From: Tepidicaulis marinus | Lineage (GTDB): Bacteria > Pseudomonadota > Alphaproteobacteria > Parvibaculales > Parvibaculaceae | Direction: 5' to 3' | NCBI RefSeq assembly: GCF_000739695.1 | Contig: NZ_BBIO01000009.1 | Coordinates: 1-64,000 of the forward strand | DNA length: 64,000 bases | Shown: one piece after another, positions 4,085-21,601 of the stretch | Layout: the number at the start of each line of letters is the position of its first letter | Position numbering within the stretch: the first letter of the stretch is position 1 | Notes under the pieces: generated by a model | What the model saw: only the letters and a program-made list of their open reading frames with translations | Told to the model about the DNA's origin: nothing | The model's database searches: none | Translations under genes and position numbers: made by a program

Positions 4085-6691
4085 TTATTCCGCCGCCGCC
4101 TGCTCGGCTGCCTTCTCATTGAAGAGCAACCCGTCTTCGCCCAGCGTCACCTTGACGGTTTCCCCGTCCTTGATTTCGCCTTCCAGCAAGAGCTCGGCAA
4201 GCGGGTCCTGCACATTGCGCTGAATGACCCGCTTCAAAGGCCGGGCGCCATAGACAGGGTCATAGCCTTTCTCGGCCAGCCAGTGCCGGGCCGCGCCGTC
4301 CAGTTCCAGCGTGATGTGCCGCCCTGCCAGAAGCTCCAGCAAACGGGCAAGCTGGATATCGACAATGGCGTCCATCTGGCTGCGGTCCAGCCGGTGGAAG
4401 AGCAGGATCTCATCGAGCCGGTTGAGGAATTCGGGCCGGAAGCGGGCACGGACCACATCCATCACCTGTTCGCGCACGGCCTCCGTGTCCTCGCCTTCGC
4501 TTTGTGCGGCCAGGAACTCGGCGCCCAAGTTCGATGTCATGATGATAATGACATTCTTGAAGTCGACCGTGCGGCCCTGTCCGTCCGTCAGGCGCCCGTC
4601 ATCGAGCACCTGAAGAAGCACGTTGAAGACATCCGGATGGGCTTTTTCGATCTCGTCGAAAAGCACGACCTGATAGGGCCGCCGGCGCACCGCCTCGGTC
4701 AGCGCCCCGCCTTCTTCATAACCCACATAGCCGGGCGGCGCCCCGATCAGCCGGGCAACCGAATGTTTCTCCATATATTCGGACATATCGAGCCGGCAGA
4801 TCGCCTGATCGTCATCGAAGAGGAACCCGGCGAGCGCCTTCGTCAGTTCCGTCTTACCGACGCCCGTCGGCCCGAGGAAGAGGAAGGAACCGATCGGCCG
4901 GTTGGGATCCTGCAAGCCCGCGCGCGCGCGGCGCACGGCGCGGGAGACGGCGGCAACCGCCTCTTCCTGCCCGATCACCCGTCCGCGCAGCGCCGTTTCC
5001 ATTTGAAGGAGCTTTTCGCGCTCGCCCTCGAGCATCTTGTCGACGGGAATCCCCGTCCAGCGGGAGACGACCTGCGCCACATCTTCGTTCGTGACGGCCT
5101 CATCCACCAGCGTCTCGCTTTCTTCCTCGGCCTGCTCAAGTTCCTGCAACCGCTTTTCCAGCGCCGGAATGATGCCGTAGGAAAGCTCGCTGGCCCGCTC
5201 CAGATTGCCCTTGCGCTGCGCCTGCACGAGTTCGTTGCGCGCGCCGTCCAGCTCTTCCTTGAGCTTTTGCGCATCGCCCAGGCGCTGTTTTTCCGCTTGC
5301 CAGGCAGCAGTCAGCGCCGCCGACTTCGAATCGAGTTCGGCCAGTTCTTGCTCAATGCGATCGAGGCGCTCTTTGGAGGCGCTGTCGGTTTCCTTTTTCA
5401 GCGCTTCGCGTTCGATCTTGAGCTGAATGATCCGCCGGTCGAGCTCGTCCAGTTCTTCCGGCTTGGAATCGACCTGCATGCGCAGCCGGCTTGCCGCCTC
5501 ATCCACAAGGTCAATAGCCTTGTCGGGCAAAAACCGGTCGGTGATATAGCGGTCCGACAGCGTCGCCGCCGAAACGATGGCACTGTCGGTAATCCGCACC
5601 CCGTGATGCAGCTCGTACTTCTCTTTCAGCCCGCGCAGGATCGAGATCGTGTCTTCCACCGTCGGCTCGGCAACGAAGACCGGCTGGAAGCGGCGGGCAA
5701 GAGCGGCATCCTTTTCCACATATTTGCGGTACTCGTTGAGCGTCGTTGCGCCCACACAGTGCAGTTCCCCGCGCGCCAGGGCGGGTTTGAGCAAGTTCGA
5801 GGCATCCATCGCCCCGTCCGTCTTGCCCGCGCCGACAAGCGTGTGCATTTCGTCGATGAAAAGAATGATCTGCCCGTCCGCCGAGCCGACTTCCGAGAGC
5901 ACCGCTTTCAGCCGCTCCTCGAACTCGCCCCGGTATTTCGCCCCGGCGATGAGCGAGCCCATATCGAGCGAAAGCAGCGACTTGTTGCGAAGACTTTCGG
6001 GCACATCGCCATTGACGATGCGCAGCGCCAGCCCTTCCACGATGGCCGTCTTACCGACGCCGGGCTCGCCGATCAGCACCGGGTTGTTTTTCGTACGCCG
6101 CGAGAGCACCTGGATTGAGCGGCGGATTTCCTCGTCGCGCCCGATCACCGGGTCGAGTTTGCCGTTGCGCGCCTCTTCGGTCAGATCGCGCGCATATTTC
6201 TTCAAGGCGTCATAGGCCTCTTCCGCCGAGGCGCTGTCGGCGGTGCGCCCTTTACGTATTTCATTGATCGCGGCATTGAGATTTTGCGGATTGGCCCCGG
6301 CAGCCGAAAGCGCTTTTTGCGCGCCCGTGCCCGGCTCGATGGCCAGCGCCAAAAGCAGCCGTTCGACGGTGACGAAACTGTCGCCCGCCTTTTTCATCAA
6401 TTGTTCGGCCTGCTCGAAAACTTTTGCGGTTTCAGGCGCGAGATAAAGCTGCCCGGCGCCGCCCCCTTCAACCTTGGGGATGGCGGCAAGCGCTGCTTCC
6501 ACCGCGCTTAAAGCCGCGGCCGGATCGCCGCCTGCATTGCGGATGAGGCCGGCGGCAAGCCCTTCTTCATCGTCCAGAATGACTTTGAGCAGATGTTCCG
6601 GCGTCAGGCGCTGATGGCCTTCACGCAGCGCCAAACCCTGGGCGGATTGAATGAACCCGCGCGCACGGTCCGTATATTTTTCCAGATCCAT
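4085..6691 (-). CDS. clpB: ATP-dependent disaggregase ClpB
   Basis: Hexameric AAA+ chaperone that extracts polypeptides from aggregates together with DnaK/DnaJ. At 868 aa it has the full family length: Clp N-domain (about 1-145), first AAA+ module with Walker A GEPGVGKT (208-215) and Walker B ILFIDEMH, a middle coiled coil (about 405-530, rich in E/K/L), and second AAA+ module with Walker A GPTGVGKT (607-614), then a C-terminal domain. The ATG has AGAGGA upstream. Expression is normally heat-shock (RpoH) driven, but no convincing RpoH promoter could be read in 6692-6850. A strong terminator follows the gene. Confidence 0.98.
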
Positions 6692-17675: not shown

Positions 17676-18329
17676 ATGGATCATAGCGTAAACCTGGAAC
17701 CGAAAATTCAGCCGCGCCAAAAACGGGCGAAAGCCACCTATGAGCGCCTGCTGGATGTTGCCGCCCGCCTTTTGGAAGAAGAAGGCGTGGAGCGTATCTC
17801 CACGAATATGATCGCCGAACATGCGGGCGTGACCGTGCCCGCGCTCTACCGCTACTTCCCGAATAAATATGCCGTACTGCGCGCGCTGGGCGACCGGCTG
17901 ATGGAGCGCCAGAACGAAGTGGCGATGGCGTGGCTTTCCGAGCAAGGCGAGCCTGACCCGGTCGGCCTTTTCGAAAGCGCGGAAGATTTCATGCTGCGCA
18001 CCATCACCGTTACGGTGGAACAGCCGGGAGGCCTTGCCATCATGCGCGCTCTGCGCGCCGTGCCCACATTGCAGGATGTGCGCCTTGCCTCCCACCGGCA
18101 GGTCACTGATCTCATCGTCGAATATCTGGCCACGATCACGCCGATGGAATCGCGCGAGAAAGCTTGGAAACAGGCGCGTTTTTCCGTCGAGATGGGCTAT
18201 GCCGCGGTGGAAATGGCGCTGGAGGAAGACCGGCTCTCCTATGAGGACATCGTCAAGGAGGCCTCGCGTCAGCTCAGGGCCTATTGGGCGCCCTGGCTGG
18301 AGAAATTCCGCAAAGATAGCGATAACTAA
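17676..18329 (+). CDS. TetR/AcrR family transcriptional regulator
   Basis: A 217-aa repressor-type protein. The N-terminal HTH (about 25-70) reads ISTNMIAEHAGVTVPALYRYF-like: ISTNMIAEHAGV then PALYRYFPNKYAVL, the standard TetR pattern. The C-terminal ligand-binding half is helical and not assignable to a ligand. GGGAGG precedes the ATG. It heads the block with the cytochrome, flavoprotein and PLP-fold genes on the same strand, so it may control them; the spacing to the cytochrome (61 bp) allows a common transcript. Confidence 0.9.
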   Translation: MDHSVNLEPKIQPRQKRAKATYERLLDVAARLLEEEGVERISTNMIAEHAGVTVPALYRYFPNKYAVLRALGDRLMERQNEVAMAWLSEQGEPDPVGLFESAEDFMLRTITVTVEQPGGLAIMRALRAVPTLQDVRLASHRQVTDLIVEYLATITPMESREKAWKQARFSVEMGYAAVEMALEEDRLSYEDIVKEASRQLRAYWAPWLEKFRKDSDN

Positions 18330-18390: not shown

Positions 18391-18864
18391 ATGATCGTGC
18401 CCGGTTCTGTAAACCCAAGCGCGGCATATGCCGCGGACCATTCTTCAAGAAAAACCGCGCCGCCGCTTAAACCGAGCCGGTCCGTTCTGGCGCTCGGCCT
18501 CGGCGCCGCGCTTATGGGCCTTGCCGCCTGCGCGCCCGATGAGCCGCAAGATACCCGCAGCCCGGAGGAAATCGCCGAGGACGCGCGCGCGCGGCTGCCG
18601 GATGATCCCGTTCTTGCCGAAAAATATGCCCGCTCCTGCAAGACCTGCCATGGCGACCCGATGAACGGCGCGCCGCTCTCGGGCGACATCAAAGCCTGGG
18701 CAAAGCGGCTGGAATGGCGCGGCAGGGACGGCCTGCTGCAAAGCACGTTGAACGGCTTCGGCGCCATGCCGCCGCTCGGCCTCTGCCCCGACTGCTCTGT
18801 GGAAGAGTTCGAAAAGCTCATCGCTTTTCTCGCCAATCAGCCCCAGCCTGAAGGCGCGCCTTAA
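18391..18864 (+). CDS. Small c-type cytochrome, probable lipoprotein
   Basis: A 157-aa electron carrier of the cytochrome c5/class I type. The haem site is C83-K-T-C86-H87 and the likely axial ligand M126 lies in GAMPPLG; a second cysteine pair, CPDC near residue 133, is typical of cytochrome c5-like proteins. A hydrophobic segment ends in LAAC47, a lipobox, so it is probably lipid-anchored and faces the periplasm. The ATG follows AAGGGGGA directly. It precedes the Tat-exported flavoprotein by 37 bp, suggesting that it takes electrons from that enzyme. Confidence 0.88.
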   Translation: MIVPGSVNPSAAYAADHSSRKTAPPLKPSRSVLALGLGAALMGLAACAPDEPQDTRSPEEIAEDARARLPDDPVLAEKYARSCKTCHGDPMNGAPLSGDIKAWAKRLEWRGRDGLLQSTLNGFGAMPPLGLCPDCSVEEFEKLIAFLANQPQPEGAP

Positions 18865-18901
18865 TCCCGTTTCAAATAAGCCGAAGCCCAGGAGCCGGAC
18901 C

Positions 18902-20284
18902 ATGGACCTTACCCGCCGCAAAATCTTGACCCTTGGGGCCAGTGCCGCCGTGAGCGCCGCCGCCCTTGCCGCCGGCACGCCGCTTAAAGCGCTGGCGCAG
19001 TCCGCTCGGCGCATCAAATGGCAGAACTGGTCGGGCGGGCAAAGCTGTCTGCCCGAAGCCCGCCTTGCGCCGGGCACGGCCGGCGAGCTCGCCGCGCTCC
19101 TTAAAGAAGCCCCGCGTCCCATCCGCCCGGTGGGGGCCGGCCATTCCTTCACCGCGCTCGTGCCGACAGAGGGCACAGTGCTCTCCCTCGACCGCCTCTC
19201 CGGTGTCCTCGATGCGGATGCTGAGAACATGACCGCCACTTTCGGCGCAGGCACAAGGCTCGGCAATATCGGCAAGGCACTCGAAGAAAAAGGCCAAGCG
19301 CTGATCAATATGCCCGACATCAACAAGCAGACCCTGGCCGGGTCCGTCTCCACCTCCACCCATGGGACGGGCGCAGAGTTCGGTTCGCTGTCGAGCTATA
19401 TCACCCAGCTTGAACTCGTCACTGCGAGCGGCGAAGTGCTGACCTGCTCGCCGTCACAGAATACGGAAGTGTTCGAAGCGGCCCGCGTCTCGCTCGGCGC
19501 GCTCGGCGTTCTCACCAAAATCACGCTGCAAAACCGCACGCCCTACAAACTGACGCGGCGCATCTGGTCCCTGCCCTTCGATCAGATGATGGAGGAGGCC
19601 GAGAGCCTCGCCGCGCAGCACCGCAATTTCGAATTCTATTACATTCCCTATTCGGGTATGTGCCTTGCCATCACCCATGACGAGACGGATGAAGACATCC
19701 GTCCGCGCGTCAGCACCGATGACGATGATGCCGTGATGACCTTGAAGGCGCTGCAGGAGTGGCTGGGCTGGGCGCCGTCACTGCGCGAATATCTCATCCG
19801 CTCCGAGCTCGAAGACCTGCCCGAAGAAGTCTATGTCGATACCTCCTGGCGCATCTATCCGAGCGAGCGCGGCGTGCGCTTCAACGAGATGGAATATCAC
19901 CTGCCGCGCGAAAAGGCGCTCGATGCCTTGAAGGAAGTGCGCCGCACGATCGAGGAAAACAATATCGAAGTGTTCTTCCCCATCGAGTTCCGCTTCGTGA
20001 AGGGCGATGATCTCTGGCTTTCGCCCTTTACGGGCCGCGAGAGCTGCTCCATCGCCGTCCACCGCTATCACGAAGAAGAATACGAACCTTACTTCCAGGC
20101 GATGGAACCGATTTTCCGCGCTCATGATGGCCGGCCCCATTGGGGCAAGCTTCACACGCTGGGCGCAGACGATTTCGCCGCGCTTTATCCGCGCTGGAAC
20201 GATTTCCTGAAAGTGCGCCGCGCGCTCGACCCGGAAGGCATCTTCCTCAACGATCATTTGCGCCACGTTTTCGGAGAAGCCTGA
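18902..20284 (+). CDS. Tat-exported FAD oxidoreductase, D-arabinono-1,4-lactone oxidase family
   Basis: VAO-type flavoprotein of 460 aa. The N-terminus has a Tat signal (LTRRKILTLG, cleavage after ALA near residue 36). The FAD domain contains VGAGHSF with H81, the expected site of covalent flavin attachment in aldonolactone and alditol oxidases, and LAGSVSTSTHGTG. The C-terminal ALO domain ends with RPHWGKLH (H413-K416), the substrate-site motif. Family members oxidise aldonolactones or polyols using oxygen or a cytochrome. AGGAG precedes the ATG. A cytochrome c gene upstream suggests a dehydrogenase rather than an oxidase; the substrate is unknown. Confidence 0.9.
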   Translation: MDLTRRKILTLGASAAVSAAALAAGTPLKALAQSARRIKWQNWSGGQSCLPEARLAPGTAGELAALLKEAPRPIRPVGAGHSFTALVPTEGTVLSLDRLSGVLDADAENMTATFGAGTRLGNIGKALEEKGQALINMPDINKQTLAGSVSTSTHGTGAEFGSLSSYITQLELVTASGEVLTCSPSQNTEVFEAARVSLGALGVLTKITLQNRTPYKLTRRIWSLPFDQMMEEAESLAAQHRNFEFYYIPYSGMCLAITHDETDEDIRPRVSTDDDDAVMTLKALQEWLGWAPSLREYLIRSELEDLPEEVYVDTSWRIYPSERGVRFNEMEYHLPREKALDALKEVRRTIEENNIEVFFPIEFRFVKGDDLWLSPFTGRESCSIAVHRYHEEEYEPYFQAMEPIFRAHDGRPHWGKLHTLGADDFAALYPRWNDFLKVRRALDPEGIFLNDHLRHVFGEA

Positions 20285-20287
20285 GCC

Positions 20288-21601
20288 ATGGCCGATTTCA
20301 AGAAACAGCTTGCCTCCATCGACCGGCGCCTTCTCATCGGCGGCGGCGCGGCGCTCGGGCTCACCGCCGGTTTCTTCGGCCTGCGCCCTTCGAATAACGG
20401 TGCGGAGGCTACCCCCTATTTCAATGCCATGACGGGCGCGCTCAAACGCGAAAAGCTGGAACGGCCCACCCTTGTCATCGACCGCGCCGCGCTCGACCGG
20501 AATATCGACCTGTTAAAAGCCGATCTTAGCCCCGGCATGGGCTACAGGATCGTGGCGAAATCCCTGCCCGCGCTCGGCCTTGTCAAACGCATCATGGAAC
20601 GGGCGGGCACGGACAAGCTCATGGTCTTCCATCAGCCCTTCCTCAATTACGTCGCCGCCAATGTACCCGGCGCAAACGTCCTCCTCGGCAAACCGATGCC
20701 GGTGGCAGCGGCGGCGCGGTTCTACGATCATGCCGCCCCCGGCTCTTTCGATCCGGCCCGGCAAGTAGAATGGCTGATCGACACGCCCCAGCGCCTTGCG
20801 CAATACGCAGACCTTGCCAAGGCGCTGGGGGTTGCCATGCGCGTCAATATCGAAATCGATGTCGGCCTGCACAGGGGCGGCGTGCGCGACAAAGCCACAC
20901 TCAAAACCATGCTGGAGGCGATCGATGCCGCGCCCGGGCTCAGCTTTTCCGGCTTCATGGGCTACGACCCGCACCTTGCCAGCGTGCCCGGCCTTCTCGG
21001 CTGGCAGGAAAGCGCCATCGAAAACTCGAAAGCCGTCTATCGGGGGTTCGTGGAGACCGCCCGCGCCCATTATGGCGAGGCCTGGAACAGAGACGCGCTG
21101 ACGCTGAACACAGCAGGCAGCCCGACTTACCGCTTTCACACGGAAAGCAAAATCGCCAATGAAGTGGCGGTGGGTTCGGCCCTCGTCAAACCGACCGATT
21201 TCGACATTCCGACGCTGGAAGGCCATGAACCGGCGGCCTTCATCTCGACCCCGGTTCTCAAAACCGCCGAGCGCACGGAAATTCCGGGCCTCGAATTTCT
21301 CTACGGCCTCACCTCGGCCTGGGACCGCAACAGCGCCAAAACCGCCTTCATCTATGGCGGCAAATGGCTCGCCAAACCCGTCGCCCCGCAAGGCCTGCAG
21401 CTCAATTCCCTGTTCGGACGCTCGACCAATCAGGAAATGCTGAACCATTCGGACCACATCTCCTTGAAGCCGGGCGATCACGTTACCTTCCGCCCGACAC
21501 AGAGCGAATTCGTTTTCCTCCAATTCGGGGATATTGCCGTTTACGACCCGGCGGAAGAGCGCATCGTGGAAAGCTGGCCGGTCTTCCAGCAAGGCGCATG
21601 A
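20288..21601 (+). CDS. Alanine racemase / D-threonine aldolase-fold PLP protein with twin-arginine N-terminus
   Basis: A 437-aa fold-type III protein. The N-terminus IDRRLLIGGGAALGLTAGFF resembles a Tat signal without a clear cleavage site, so it may stay anchored in the membrane. The barrel contains K91 in RIVAKSLPALG, the expected PLP Schiff-base lysine, and GDHVTFRP in the C-terminal beta-domain. The metal-binding H-x-C found in D-threonine aldolases just after this point is replaced by TQSEF. It starts 3 bp after the flavoprotein stop with GGAGAA upstream, so the two are co-translated. Reaction and substrate are unknown. Confidence 0.82.
   Translation: MADFKKQLASIDRRLLIGGGAALGLTAGFFGLRPSNNGAEATPYFNAMTGALKREKLERPTLVIDRAALDRNIDLLKADLSPGMGYRIVAKSLPALGLVKRIMERAGTDKLMVFHQPFLNYVAANVPGANVLLGKPMPVAAAARFYDHAAPGSFDPARQVEWLIDTPQRLAQYADLAKALGVAMRVNIEIDVGLHRGGVRDKATLKTMLEAIDAAPGLSFSGFMGYDPHLASVPGLLGWQESAIENSKAVYRGFVETARAHYGEAWNRDALTLNTAGSPTYRFHTESKIANEVAVGSALVKPTDFDIPTLEGHEPAAFISTPVLKTAERTEIPGLEFLYGLTSAWDRNSAKTAFIYGGKWLAKPVAPQGLQLNSLFGRSTNQEMLNHSDHISLKPGDHVTFRPTQSEFVFLQFGDIAVYDPAEERIVESWPVFQQGA

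What the first reader, a model, noticed from the sequence alone, without database searches (positions are those of the whole stretch)
18391..21601. Candidate periplasmic oxidation module: cytochrome c, Tat flavoprotein and Tat-like PLP-fold protein
Seen: a lipobox cytochrome c (CKTCH), a Tat-signal VAO flavoprotein with the covalent-FAD histidine and the ALO motif HWGK, and a fold-type III PLP-like protein with its own twin-arginine N-terminus, in one tight run behind a TetR gene. Known: ALO-type enzymes oxidise sugar lactones and polyols; alanine-racemase/D-threonine-aldolase-fold enzymes are normally cytoplasmic. Inference: Tat export would let both be loaded with cofactor before leaving the cytoplasm, so the PLP protein could make or split a substrate that the flavoprotein oxidises, passing electrons to the cytochrome. 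I know of no described pathway with this set.
Basis: partly seen in the sequence, partly recalled or inferred. Interest (0 to 1): 0.62.

Follow-up and report, generated by a model that had tools for sequence, protein, structure and literature searches.

The report
Periplasmic sphingosine-breakdown operon (sphBCD)
The three genes are an alphaproteobacterial copy of the sphBCD operon that Pseudomonas uses to get rid of sphingosine, a toxic lipid building block of animals, plants and some microbes; relatives show that the oxidising enzyme and its cleaving partner nearly always share a compartment, and that the cytochrome is found only where the oxidising enzyme is exported.

Summary
Behind a TetR gene lie a lipoprotein cytochrome c (18391-18864), a twin-arginine ALO-type flavoprotein (18902-20284) and a twin-arginine fold-type-III PLP protein (20288-21601). 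The set is not undescribed. All three are collinear with, and 45-48% identical to, Pseudomonas aeruginosa sphB-sphC-sphD (PA5328-PA5326), the sphingosine-induced operon.

New from comparative genomics: sphC lies next to sphD in 33 of 35 genomes drawn without regard to the neighbourhood. Both proteins carry Tat-like signals in 63 loci, neither in 33, only SphC in 6, SphD alone in none. The cytochrome is found only where SphC is exported. SphC's oxygen-gatekeeper residue is Gly in every cytosolic form, never beside the cytochrome. The P. aeruginosa SphD start is probably misannotated and hides a Tat N-terminus. Oxidising C1 of natural sphingosine gives a D-configured amino acid, the substrate class of D-threonine aldolases, whose fold SphD has, although its metal dyad is replaced by Q-x-E. 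Substrate and reaction remain unproven.

The parts
17676..18329 (+). TetR-family regulator, likely local regulator of the operon
   Evidence: PF00440 E 3.7e-16; 58-64% identical TetR in the same place in the closest Rhodobiaceae loci L004-L008; TetR homologue within 2.5 kb of sphC in 29 of 103 loci. Role inferred.
18391..18864 (+). sphB-like lipoprotein cytochrome c (c5-like)
   Evidence: PF13442 E 1e-12; 45% identical to P. aeruginosa SphB; lipobox Cys47 from the translation
18637..18651 (+). haem-binding motif CKTCH
   Evidence: translation, DNA
18902..20284 (+). sphC-like VAO/ALO-type covalent flavoprotein with Tat signal
   Evidence: TIGR01679 E 1.5e-164; 47% identical to P. aeruginosa SphC; invariant H81, D139, E362, R364, H387, K416 in 93 relatives
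18914..18919 (+). twin arginine of SphC signal (MDLTRRKILTLGASAAVSAAALAAG)
   Evidence: the equivalent signal was shown functional in P. aeruginosa (PMC6085387)
19142..19144 (+). His81, covalent FAD attachment (equivalent of AldO His46)
   Evidence: alignment to 2vfr, invariant in 93 relatives
19313..19315 (+). Pro138, position of the oxygen gatekeeper (GalDH Ala113)
   Evidence: alignment to AldO Ala105; Pro here, Gly in all cytosolic forms
20288..21601 (+). sphD-like fold-type III PLP protein with Tat-like N-terminus
   Evidence: PF01168; 48% identical to P. aeruginosa SphD; DTA/BhcC fold in model
20324..20329 (+). twin arginine of SphD N-terminus (ASIDRRLLIGGGAALGLTAGFFGL); no strong cleavage site, so perhaps a membrane anchor
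20558..20560 (+). Lys91, PLP Schiff-base lysine
   Evidence: invariant in 32 relatives, aligns with the BhcC lysine
21500..21508 (+). Gln405-Ser-Glu407, in place of the His-x-Asp/Cys metal dyad of D-threonine aldolases/BhcC
   Evidence: Glu407 invariant, Gln405 nearly so; profile-profile alignment with BhcC

Best explanation
The trio is an sphBCD operon for detoxifying or using sphingoid bases. SphC, exported folded with covalent FAD by Tat, oxidises the C1 hydroxyl of sphingosine or a related sphingoid base to the aldehyde and probably on to the acid, giving a long-chain D-beta-hydroxy amino acid (or amino aldehyde). The lipoprotein cytochrome SphB takes the electrons to the respiratory chain. 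SphD, a Tat-exported and perhaps membrane-anchored relative of D-threonine aldolase, cleaves the C2-C3 bond to glycine (or aminoacetaldehyde) and a long-chain aldehyde such as 2-hexadecenal. TetR probably controls the operon. Shown by others in Pseudomonas: induction by sphingosine, need for sphB and sphC in sphingosine removal, Tat export of SphC. Shown here: relationship by identity and gene order, co-variation of compartments, conserved catalytic residues. Inferred: substrate in this organism, oxidation at C1, order of steps, SphD reaction.
For: Gene order and 45-48% identity to P. aeruginosa SphB/C/D; the window SphC is closer to PA SphC (47%) than the genome's own paralogue is (39%). SphR-dependent induction by sphingosine, and the C1-oxidation/aldolase proposal (PMC3900636); loss of sphingosine removal without sphBC (PMC11893366). 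AldO-type catalytic set conserved. SphD has the DTA/BhcC fold and PLP lysine. Compartments: 63 both exported, 33 neither, 6 SphC only, 0 SphD only, which fits SphC acting first. Cytochrome in 47 of 69 loci with exported SphC and 0 of 33 with cytosolic SphC. In Yoonia, SphD lies near aldehyde dehydrogenase-like, AMP-binding ligase, enoyl-CoA hydratase and 2,4-dienoyl-CoA reductase genes, as expected if it releases an enal. Stereochemistry worked by hand: (2S,3R)-sphingosine oxidised at C1 becomes (2R,3R), a D-amino acid of the D-allo-threonine type.
Against: No product has been identified, and direct action of SphC on sphingosine is unproven. sphD was dispensable in the published growth assay. 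SphD lacks the His-x-Asp/Cys metal dyad that D-threonine aldolases use. Caulobacter sphC had little phenotype. This genome has no neutral ceramidase PF04734. The PLP gene occurs without a neighbouring sphC in 12 of 115 loci (at least one, L056, lies at a contig edge).
Confidence: 0.7

Rival explanations
1. The module oxidises and cleaves another amino alcohol or hydroxylated amine (capnine-type sulfonolipid bases, amino polyols), and sphingosine sensitivity in Pseudomonas is only one consequence.
For: Cytosolic versions in Bacteroidota, Rhizobiaceae-like and other bacteria; most sphD-bearing genomes lack PF04734 ceramidase (2 of 23 have it); direct action on sphingosine not shown.
Against: The only experimentally studied members are induced by sphingosine or needed for growth with it, and sphBC also mattered with sphinganine and phytosphingosine. 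Ceramidase and sphD co-occur more than expected, though weakly (p 0.04).
Confidence: 0.17
2. One reading: the PLP enzyme makes or splits a compound and the flavoprotein oxidises the product (polyol, lactone or beta-hydroxy amino acid chemistry).
For: SphC is in the ALO family and keeps the AldO polyol active-site residues E362, R364, H387, K416.
Against: SphD is never exported without SphC, whereas SphC is exported without SphD in 6 loci, on at least four separate tree branches. AldO Ser106 is replaced by an invariant Asp139. sphC but not sphD was needed in Pseudomonas.
Confidence: 0.05
3. SphD does not cleave: it is a racemase, a dehydratase or a non-catalytic PLP/aldehyde-binding helper, and SphB-SphC alone detoxify sphingoid bases (compatible with the sphBCD identity, but not with the cleavage step).
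For: sphD was dispensable in the growth assay; metal dyad replaced by Q-x-E; some Pseudomonas carry sphBC only.
Against: Invariant PLP lysine and many invariant active-site positions across phyla; near-constant adjacency and mostly shared compartment with SphC; the two sphBC-only organisms tested showed little or no phenotype.
Confidence: 0.2

Closest known systems
Pseudomonas aeruginosa sphB-sphC-sphD (PA5328-PA5326)
   Same: Same gene order, families, cytochrome lipobox and SphC Tat signal; 45-48% identity in each protein.
   Different: TetR gene upstream instead of a nearby AraC-type SphR; no sphA porin neighbour in the window and no PF04734 ceramidase in the genome; gatekeeper residue Pro instead of Ala; SphD Tat-like start plain here, apparently truncated by annotation in the P. 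aeruginosa record.
Alditol (xylitol) oxidase AldO, 2vfr; ALO/GULO/GalDH family
   Same: Covalent-FAD His, Glu, Arg, His and Lys of the active site.
   Different: AldO Ser106 is Asp139, invariant; Ala105 is Pro138; Tat-exported with a cytochrome partner.
D-threonine aldolase / 3-hydroxyaspartate aldolase BhcC (6qkb, 4v15)
   Same: Fold-type III barrel plus C-terminal domain, PLP lysine, similar phosphate-binding region.
   Different: About 20% identity; metal dyad H-x-D replaced by Q-x-E; exported N-terminus.
M. tuberculosis Rv1771 (gulonolactone dehydrogenase)
   Same: ALO-family bacterial dehydrogenase.
   Different: Neighbourhood and relation to SphC not tested here.

Membership tests
sphBCD operon | Adjacent genes for mono-haem cytochrome c, ALO-type flavoprotein and fold-III PLP protein in the order B-C-D | tested here: met
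sphBCD operon | Each protein closest to SphB, SphC, SphD among paralogues in the genome | tested here: met
   only one SphD-like gene; window SphC scores above the C45 paralogue. Paralogues of SphB were not searched genome-wide.
sphBCD operon | SphC exported by Tat | tested here: met
   motif and hydrophobic stretch only; export itself shown only in P. aeruginosa
sphBCD operon | Regulation by sphingosine through SphR | not testable with these tools
   No AraC-type SphR gene next to the window trio; a TetR gene is there instead
sphBCD operon | Required for sphingosine metabolism | not testable with these tools
   needs deletion and LC-MS
VAO/ALO flavoproteins (TIGR01679) | Score above family cut-off, covalent-FAD His, HWxK | tested here: met
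   547.9 bits vs 292.25 cut-off
Metal-dependent D-threonine aldolases | PLP lysine in fold-type III barrel | tested here: met
Metal-dependent D-threonine aldolases | His-x-Asp/Cys divalent-metal dyad in the C-terminal domain | tested here: not met
   PTQSE opposite PGHCD of BhcC; so it is not filed as a D-threonine aldolase
BhcC equivalog NF045642 | Score above 690 bits | tested here: not met
   47.3 bits

The most novel reading that the evidence does not exclude
SphC-SphD is a compartment-switchable sphingoid-base cleavage pathway that runs through a D-beta-hydroxy amino acid. An exported form (Tat on both enzymes) passes electrons to a dedicated cytochrome c. A cytosolic form with a Gly gatekeeper uses O2 and occurs in Bacteroidota, Rhizobiaceae-like and other bacteria, some of them likely sphingolipid or sulfonolipid makers. 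A split form oxidises outside and cleaves inside. SphD is a new subfamily of fold-III aldolases with a Q-x-E site instead of the metal dyad, and is exported in P. aeruginosa too.
Probability: 0.4. Interest if true: 0.65.

Novelty: new member of a known kind. Interest (0 to 1): 0.45.

Why it matters
Sphingosine is an antimicrobial lipid at skin and airway surfaces, and sphingoid bases are also common in soil and sea. How bacteria break them down is an open biochemical question: the 2025 study could not find the product and left SphD without a role. The comparative pattern ties SphD to SphC, orders the two steps, predicts a D-amino acid intermediate, and shows that the gene pair reaches well beyond the groups in which it was reported. 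It also flags a probably misannotated sphD start in P. aeruginosa that hides an export signal.

Tried and rejected
Mycobacterial Rv1769-Rv1771 as closest system: a lead from memory; papers gave no link to this PLP family and it could not be fetched, so it is not used. Gatekeeper residue as a clean oxidase/dehydrogenase predictor for the window: rejected, because the rule puts Pro with oxidases and has exceptions. Asp139 as a marker of SphD-linked SphC: rejected, because the cytosolic paralogue without SphD has it too. Phylogeny-corrected significance: export state of SphC changes only three times, so sign tests cannot reach 0.05; cytochrome versus non-Gly gives about 4 of 6 pairs the same way, 0 opposite, median p 0.125. 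SphD Tat in L111: motif false positive, start lies downstream. L027: SphC reading frame chimaeric or broken, excluded. Ceramidase association: only weak. Neighbouring GlpD/YHS genes in Tenacibaculum: genus-level synteny.

Full report
What is there. The window carries, on the plus strand, TetR (17676-18329), a lipoprotein cytochrome c (18391-18864), an ALO-type flavoprotein (18902-20284) and a fold-type III PLP protein (20288-21601), with 61, 37 and 3 nt between them. Family searches give PF00440, PF13442, TIGR01679/PF04030 and PF01168. The next gene downstream is on the other strand, so the unit ends with the PLP gene. Both enzymes begin with a twin arginine and a hydrophobic stretch. The genome has one TatC, one close member of this PLP family (the only other hit is 26% identical over part) and a second, signal-less ALO gene on another contig.

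Conserved neighbourhood. A genome scan with the PLP protein gave 78 loci from Alpha-, Gamma- and Deltaproteobacteria, Bacteroidota and others. Two draws of genomes made without regard to the neighbourhood (398 of the phylum, 385 of the class) gave 35 genomes with the PLP gene, of which 33 have the flavoprotein gene at the locus. Over 115 distinct loci, 103 have it. It is adjacent on the same strand in 99 by the automatic rule, plus two whose stop-to-stop frames overlap beyond the rule's limit (L032, L124). In L111 a transporter gene intervenes, and in L129 the two genes lie about 4 kb apart on opposite strands. The PLP protein is thus a genuine partner of the flavoprotein.

Identity of the system. 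[quoted passage not shown] These are PA5328-PA5326. [quoted passage not shown] Okino and Ito (PMC5150637) saw the same genes induced by sphingomyelin. Gimenez et al. (PMC6085387) showed Tat export of SphC. DiGianivittorio et al. (PMC11893366) showed that sphB and sphC are needed for growth with, and removal of, sphingosine; sphD was dispensable in their assay and the product is unknown. The window proteins are 45, 47 and 48% identical to SphB, SphC and SphD.

Compartments. N-termini were judged by twin arginine plus hydrophobic stretch; no SignalP was available. Among 102 loci with an intact sphC, 63 have signals on both enzymes, 33 on neither, 6 on SphC only and none on SphD only. The cytochrome homologue is present in 47 of 69 loci with exported SphC and in none of 33 with cytosolic SphC. 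On the SphC tree the export state changes at least three times on supported branches: Bacteroidota with L111, a Rhizobiaceae-like clade, and L114/L115. In each cytosolic clade SphD has no signal and there is no cytochrome gene. Three changes are too few for a phylogeny-corrected test, so the numbers describe a pattern rather than prove a law. The split cases (Ruegeria L127, Yoonia L129, L161-L163, L164) lie on at least four separate branches and always leave SphC outside and SphD inside. That fits SphC acting first. In Ruegeria and Yoonia a DUF819 membrane protein is encoded at the locus, a candidate importer of the oxidised intermediate (inference). Three loci with cytosolic SphD (L111, L129, L164) carry mutually similar aldehyde dehydrogenases, and none of the loci with exported SphD had a hit. 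Yoonia also has an AMP-binding (acyl-CoA ligase-type) gene, an enoyl-CoA hydratase and a dienoyl-CoA reductase, as expected for an enal entering beta-oxidation. These neighbour counts are post hoc.

SphC chemistry. H81, D139, E362, R364, H387 and K416 are invariant in 93 relatives. They match the covalent-FAD histidine and catalytic residues of AldO (alignment; residue roles in AldO from general knowledge), except that AldO Ser106 is Asp139. The position of the oxygen gatekeeper (GalDH Ala113; A113G raises oxygen reactivity 70-300-fold, PMC11099136) is Gly in all 33 cytosolic forms and in six exported forms without a cytochrome gene, and never Gly beside the cytochrome, where it is Pro, Ala or Ser. 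Pro, the window's residue, is usually listed with oxidases, with exceptions (PMC11505616), so oxygen use by the window enzyme is open.

SphD chemistry. The model (mean pLDDT 90) matches BhcC and D-threonine aldolases best. The PLP lysine is K91. The His-x-Asp metal dyad of BhcC is opposite Q405-S-E407, with E407 invariant, so the protein may work like, but is not filed as, a metal-dependent D-threonine aldolase. By hand: natural sphingosine is (2S,3R). Turning C1 into an aldehyde or acid raises its priority above C3, so the same centre is now 2R, a D-amino acid, with 3R, the D-allo-threonine arrangement. D-threonine aldolases are known (general knowledge) to accept D-configured beta-hydroxy amino acids with loose beta-carbon specificity, which supports the 2014 proposal.

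A missed signal in P. aeruginosa. The RefSeq start of SphD in the record (L128 position 5998) has an in-frame GTG 23 codons upstream (position 5929), 13 nt after the sphC stop and preceded by AAAGGAG. It opens VNRRKFMFAGLGAGALLAGAAAW. Related loci (L104-L106) have MKRR starts at the same place. SphD is therefore probably exported in P. aeruginosa too, although it is not mentioned in the main text of the published Tat-substrate survey.

Verdict. The trio is a new member of a known kind, sphBCD, in an alphaproteobacterium with a TetR gene instead of SphR. The widespread cytosolic and split variants and the co-variation of signal, cytochrome and gatekeeper are, as far as the held papers show, not described; [quoted passage not shown]

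Noticed in passing
L128:5929-5998 (P. aeruginosa plasmid p1B17416): sphD start appears misannotated; upstream GTG with AAAGGAG ribosome site opens a twin-arginine N-terminus.
   Followed up: yes
L128 whole stretch: The p1B17416 'plasmid' record carries rph, pyrE, sphR, argB and dut next to the sph genes, which look like a piece of chromosome.
   Followed up: no
L126:6201-7538 (own genome C45, around 134221-134991): Second, signal-less ALO-type flavoprotein (42% to P0002) with Gly at the gatekeeper position and no sphD nearby.
   Followed up: partly
L009, L030, L036, L038, L040, L051, L053: SphC in Colwellia/Shewanella/Arenicella-type loci has a cysteine after the Tat hydrophobic stretch (e.g. 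LSACS), so it may be a Tat lipoprotein; most of these loci lack the cytochrome gene.
   Followed up: no
L127:9501-9980; L057-L078 near 7200: YHS-domain secreted protein encoded close to sphD in both Ruegeria and Tenacibaculum.
   Followed up: no
L012:7347-7835, L025:7347-7838: Hyphomonas loci have a different cytochrome c (CNDCH/CHDCH) directly downstream of sphD instead of the sphB type upstream.
   Followed up: no
L020, L022, L024, L028, L031, L054, L063, L068, L075, L118, L156: sphD-like gene without neighbouring sphC, several with a Tat-like N-terminus; L054 has an alcohol dehydrogenase gene just upstream.
   Followed up: partly
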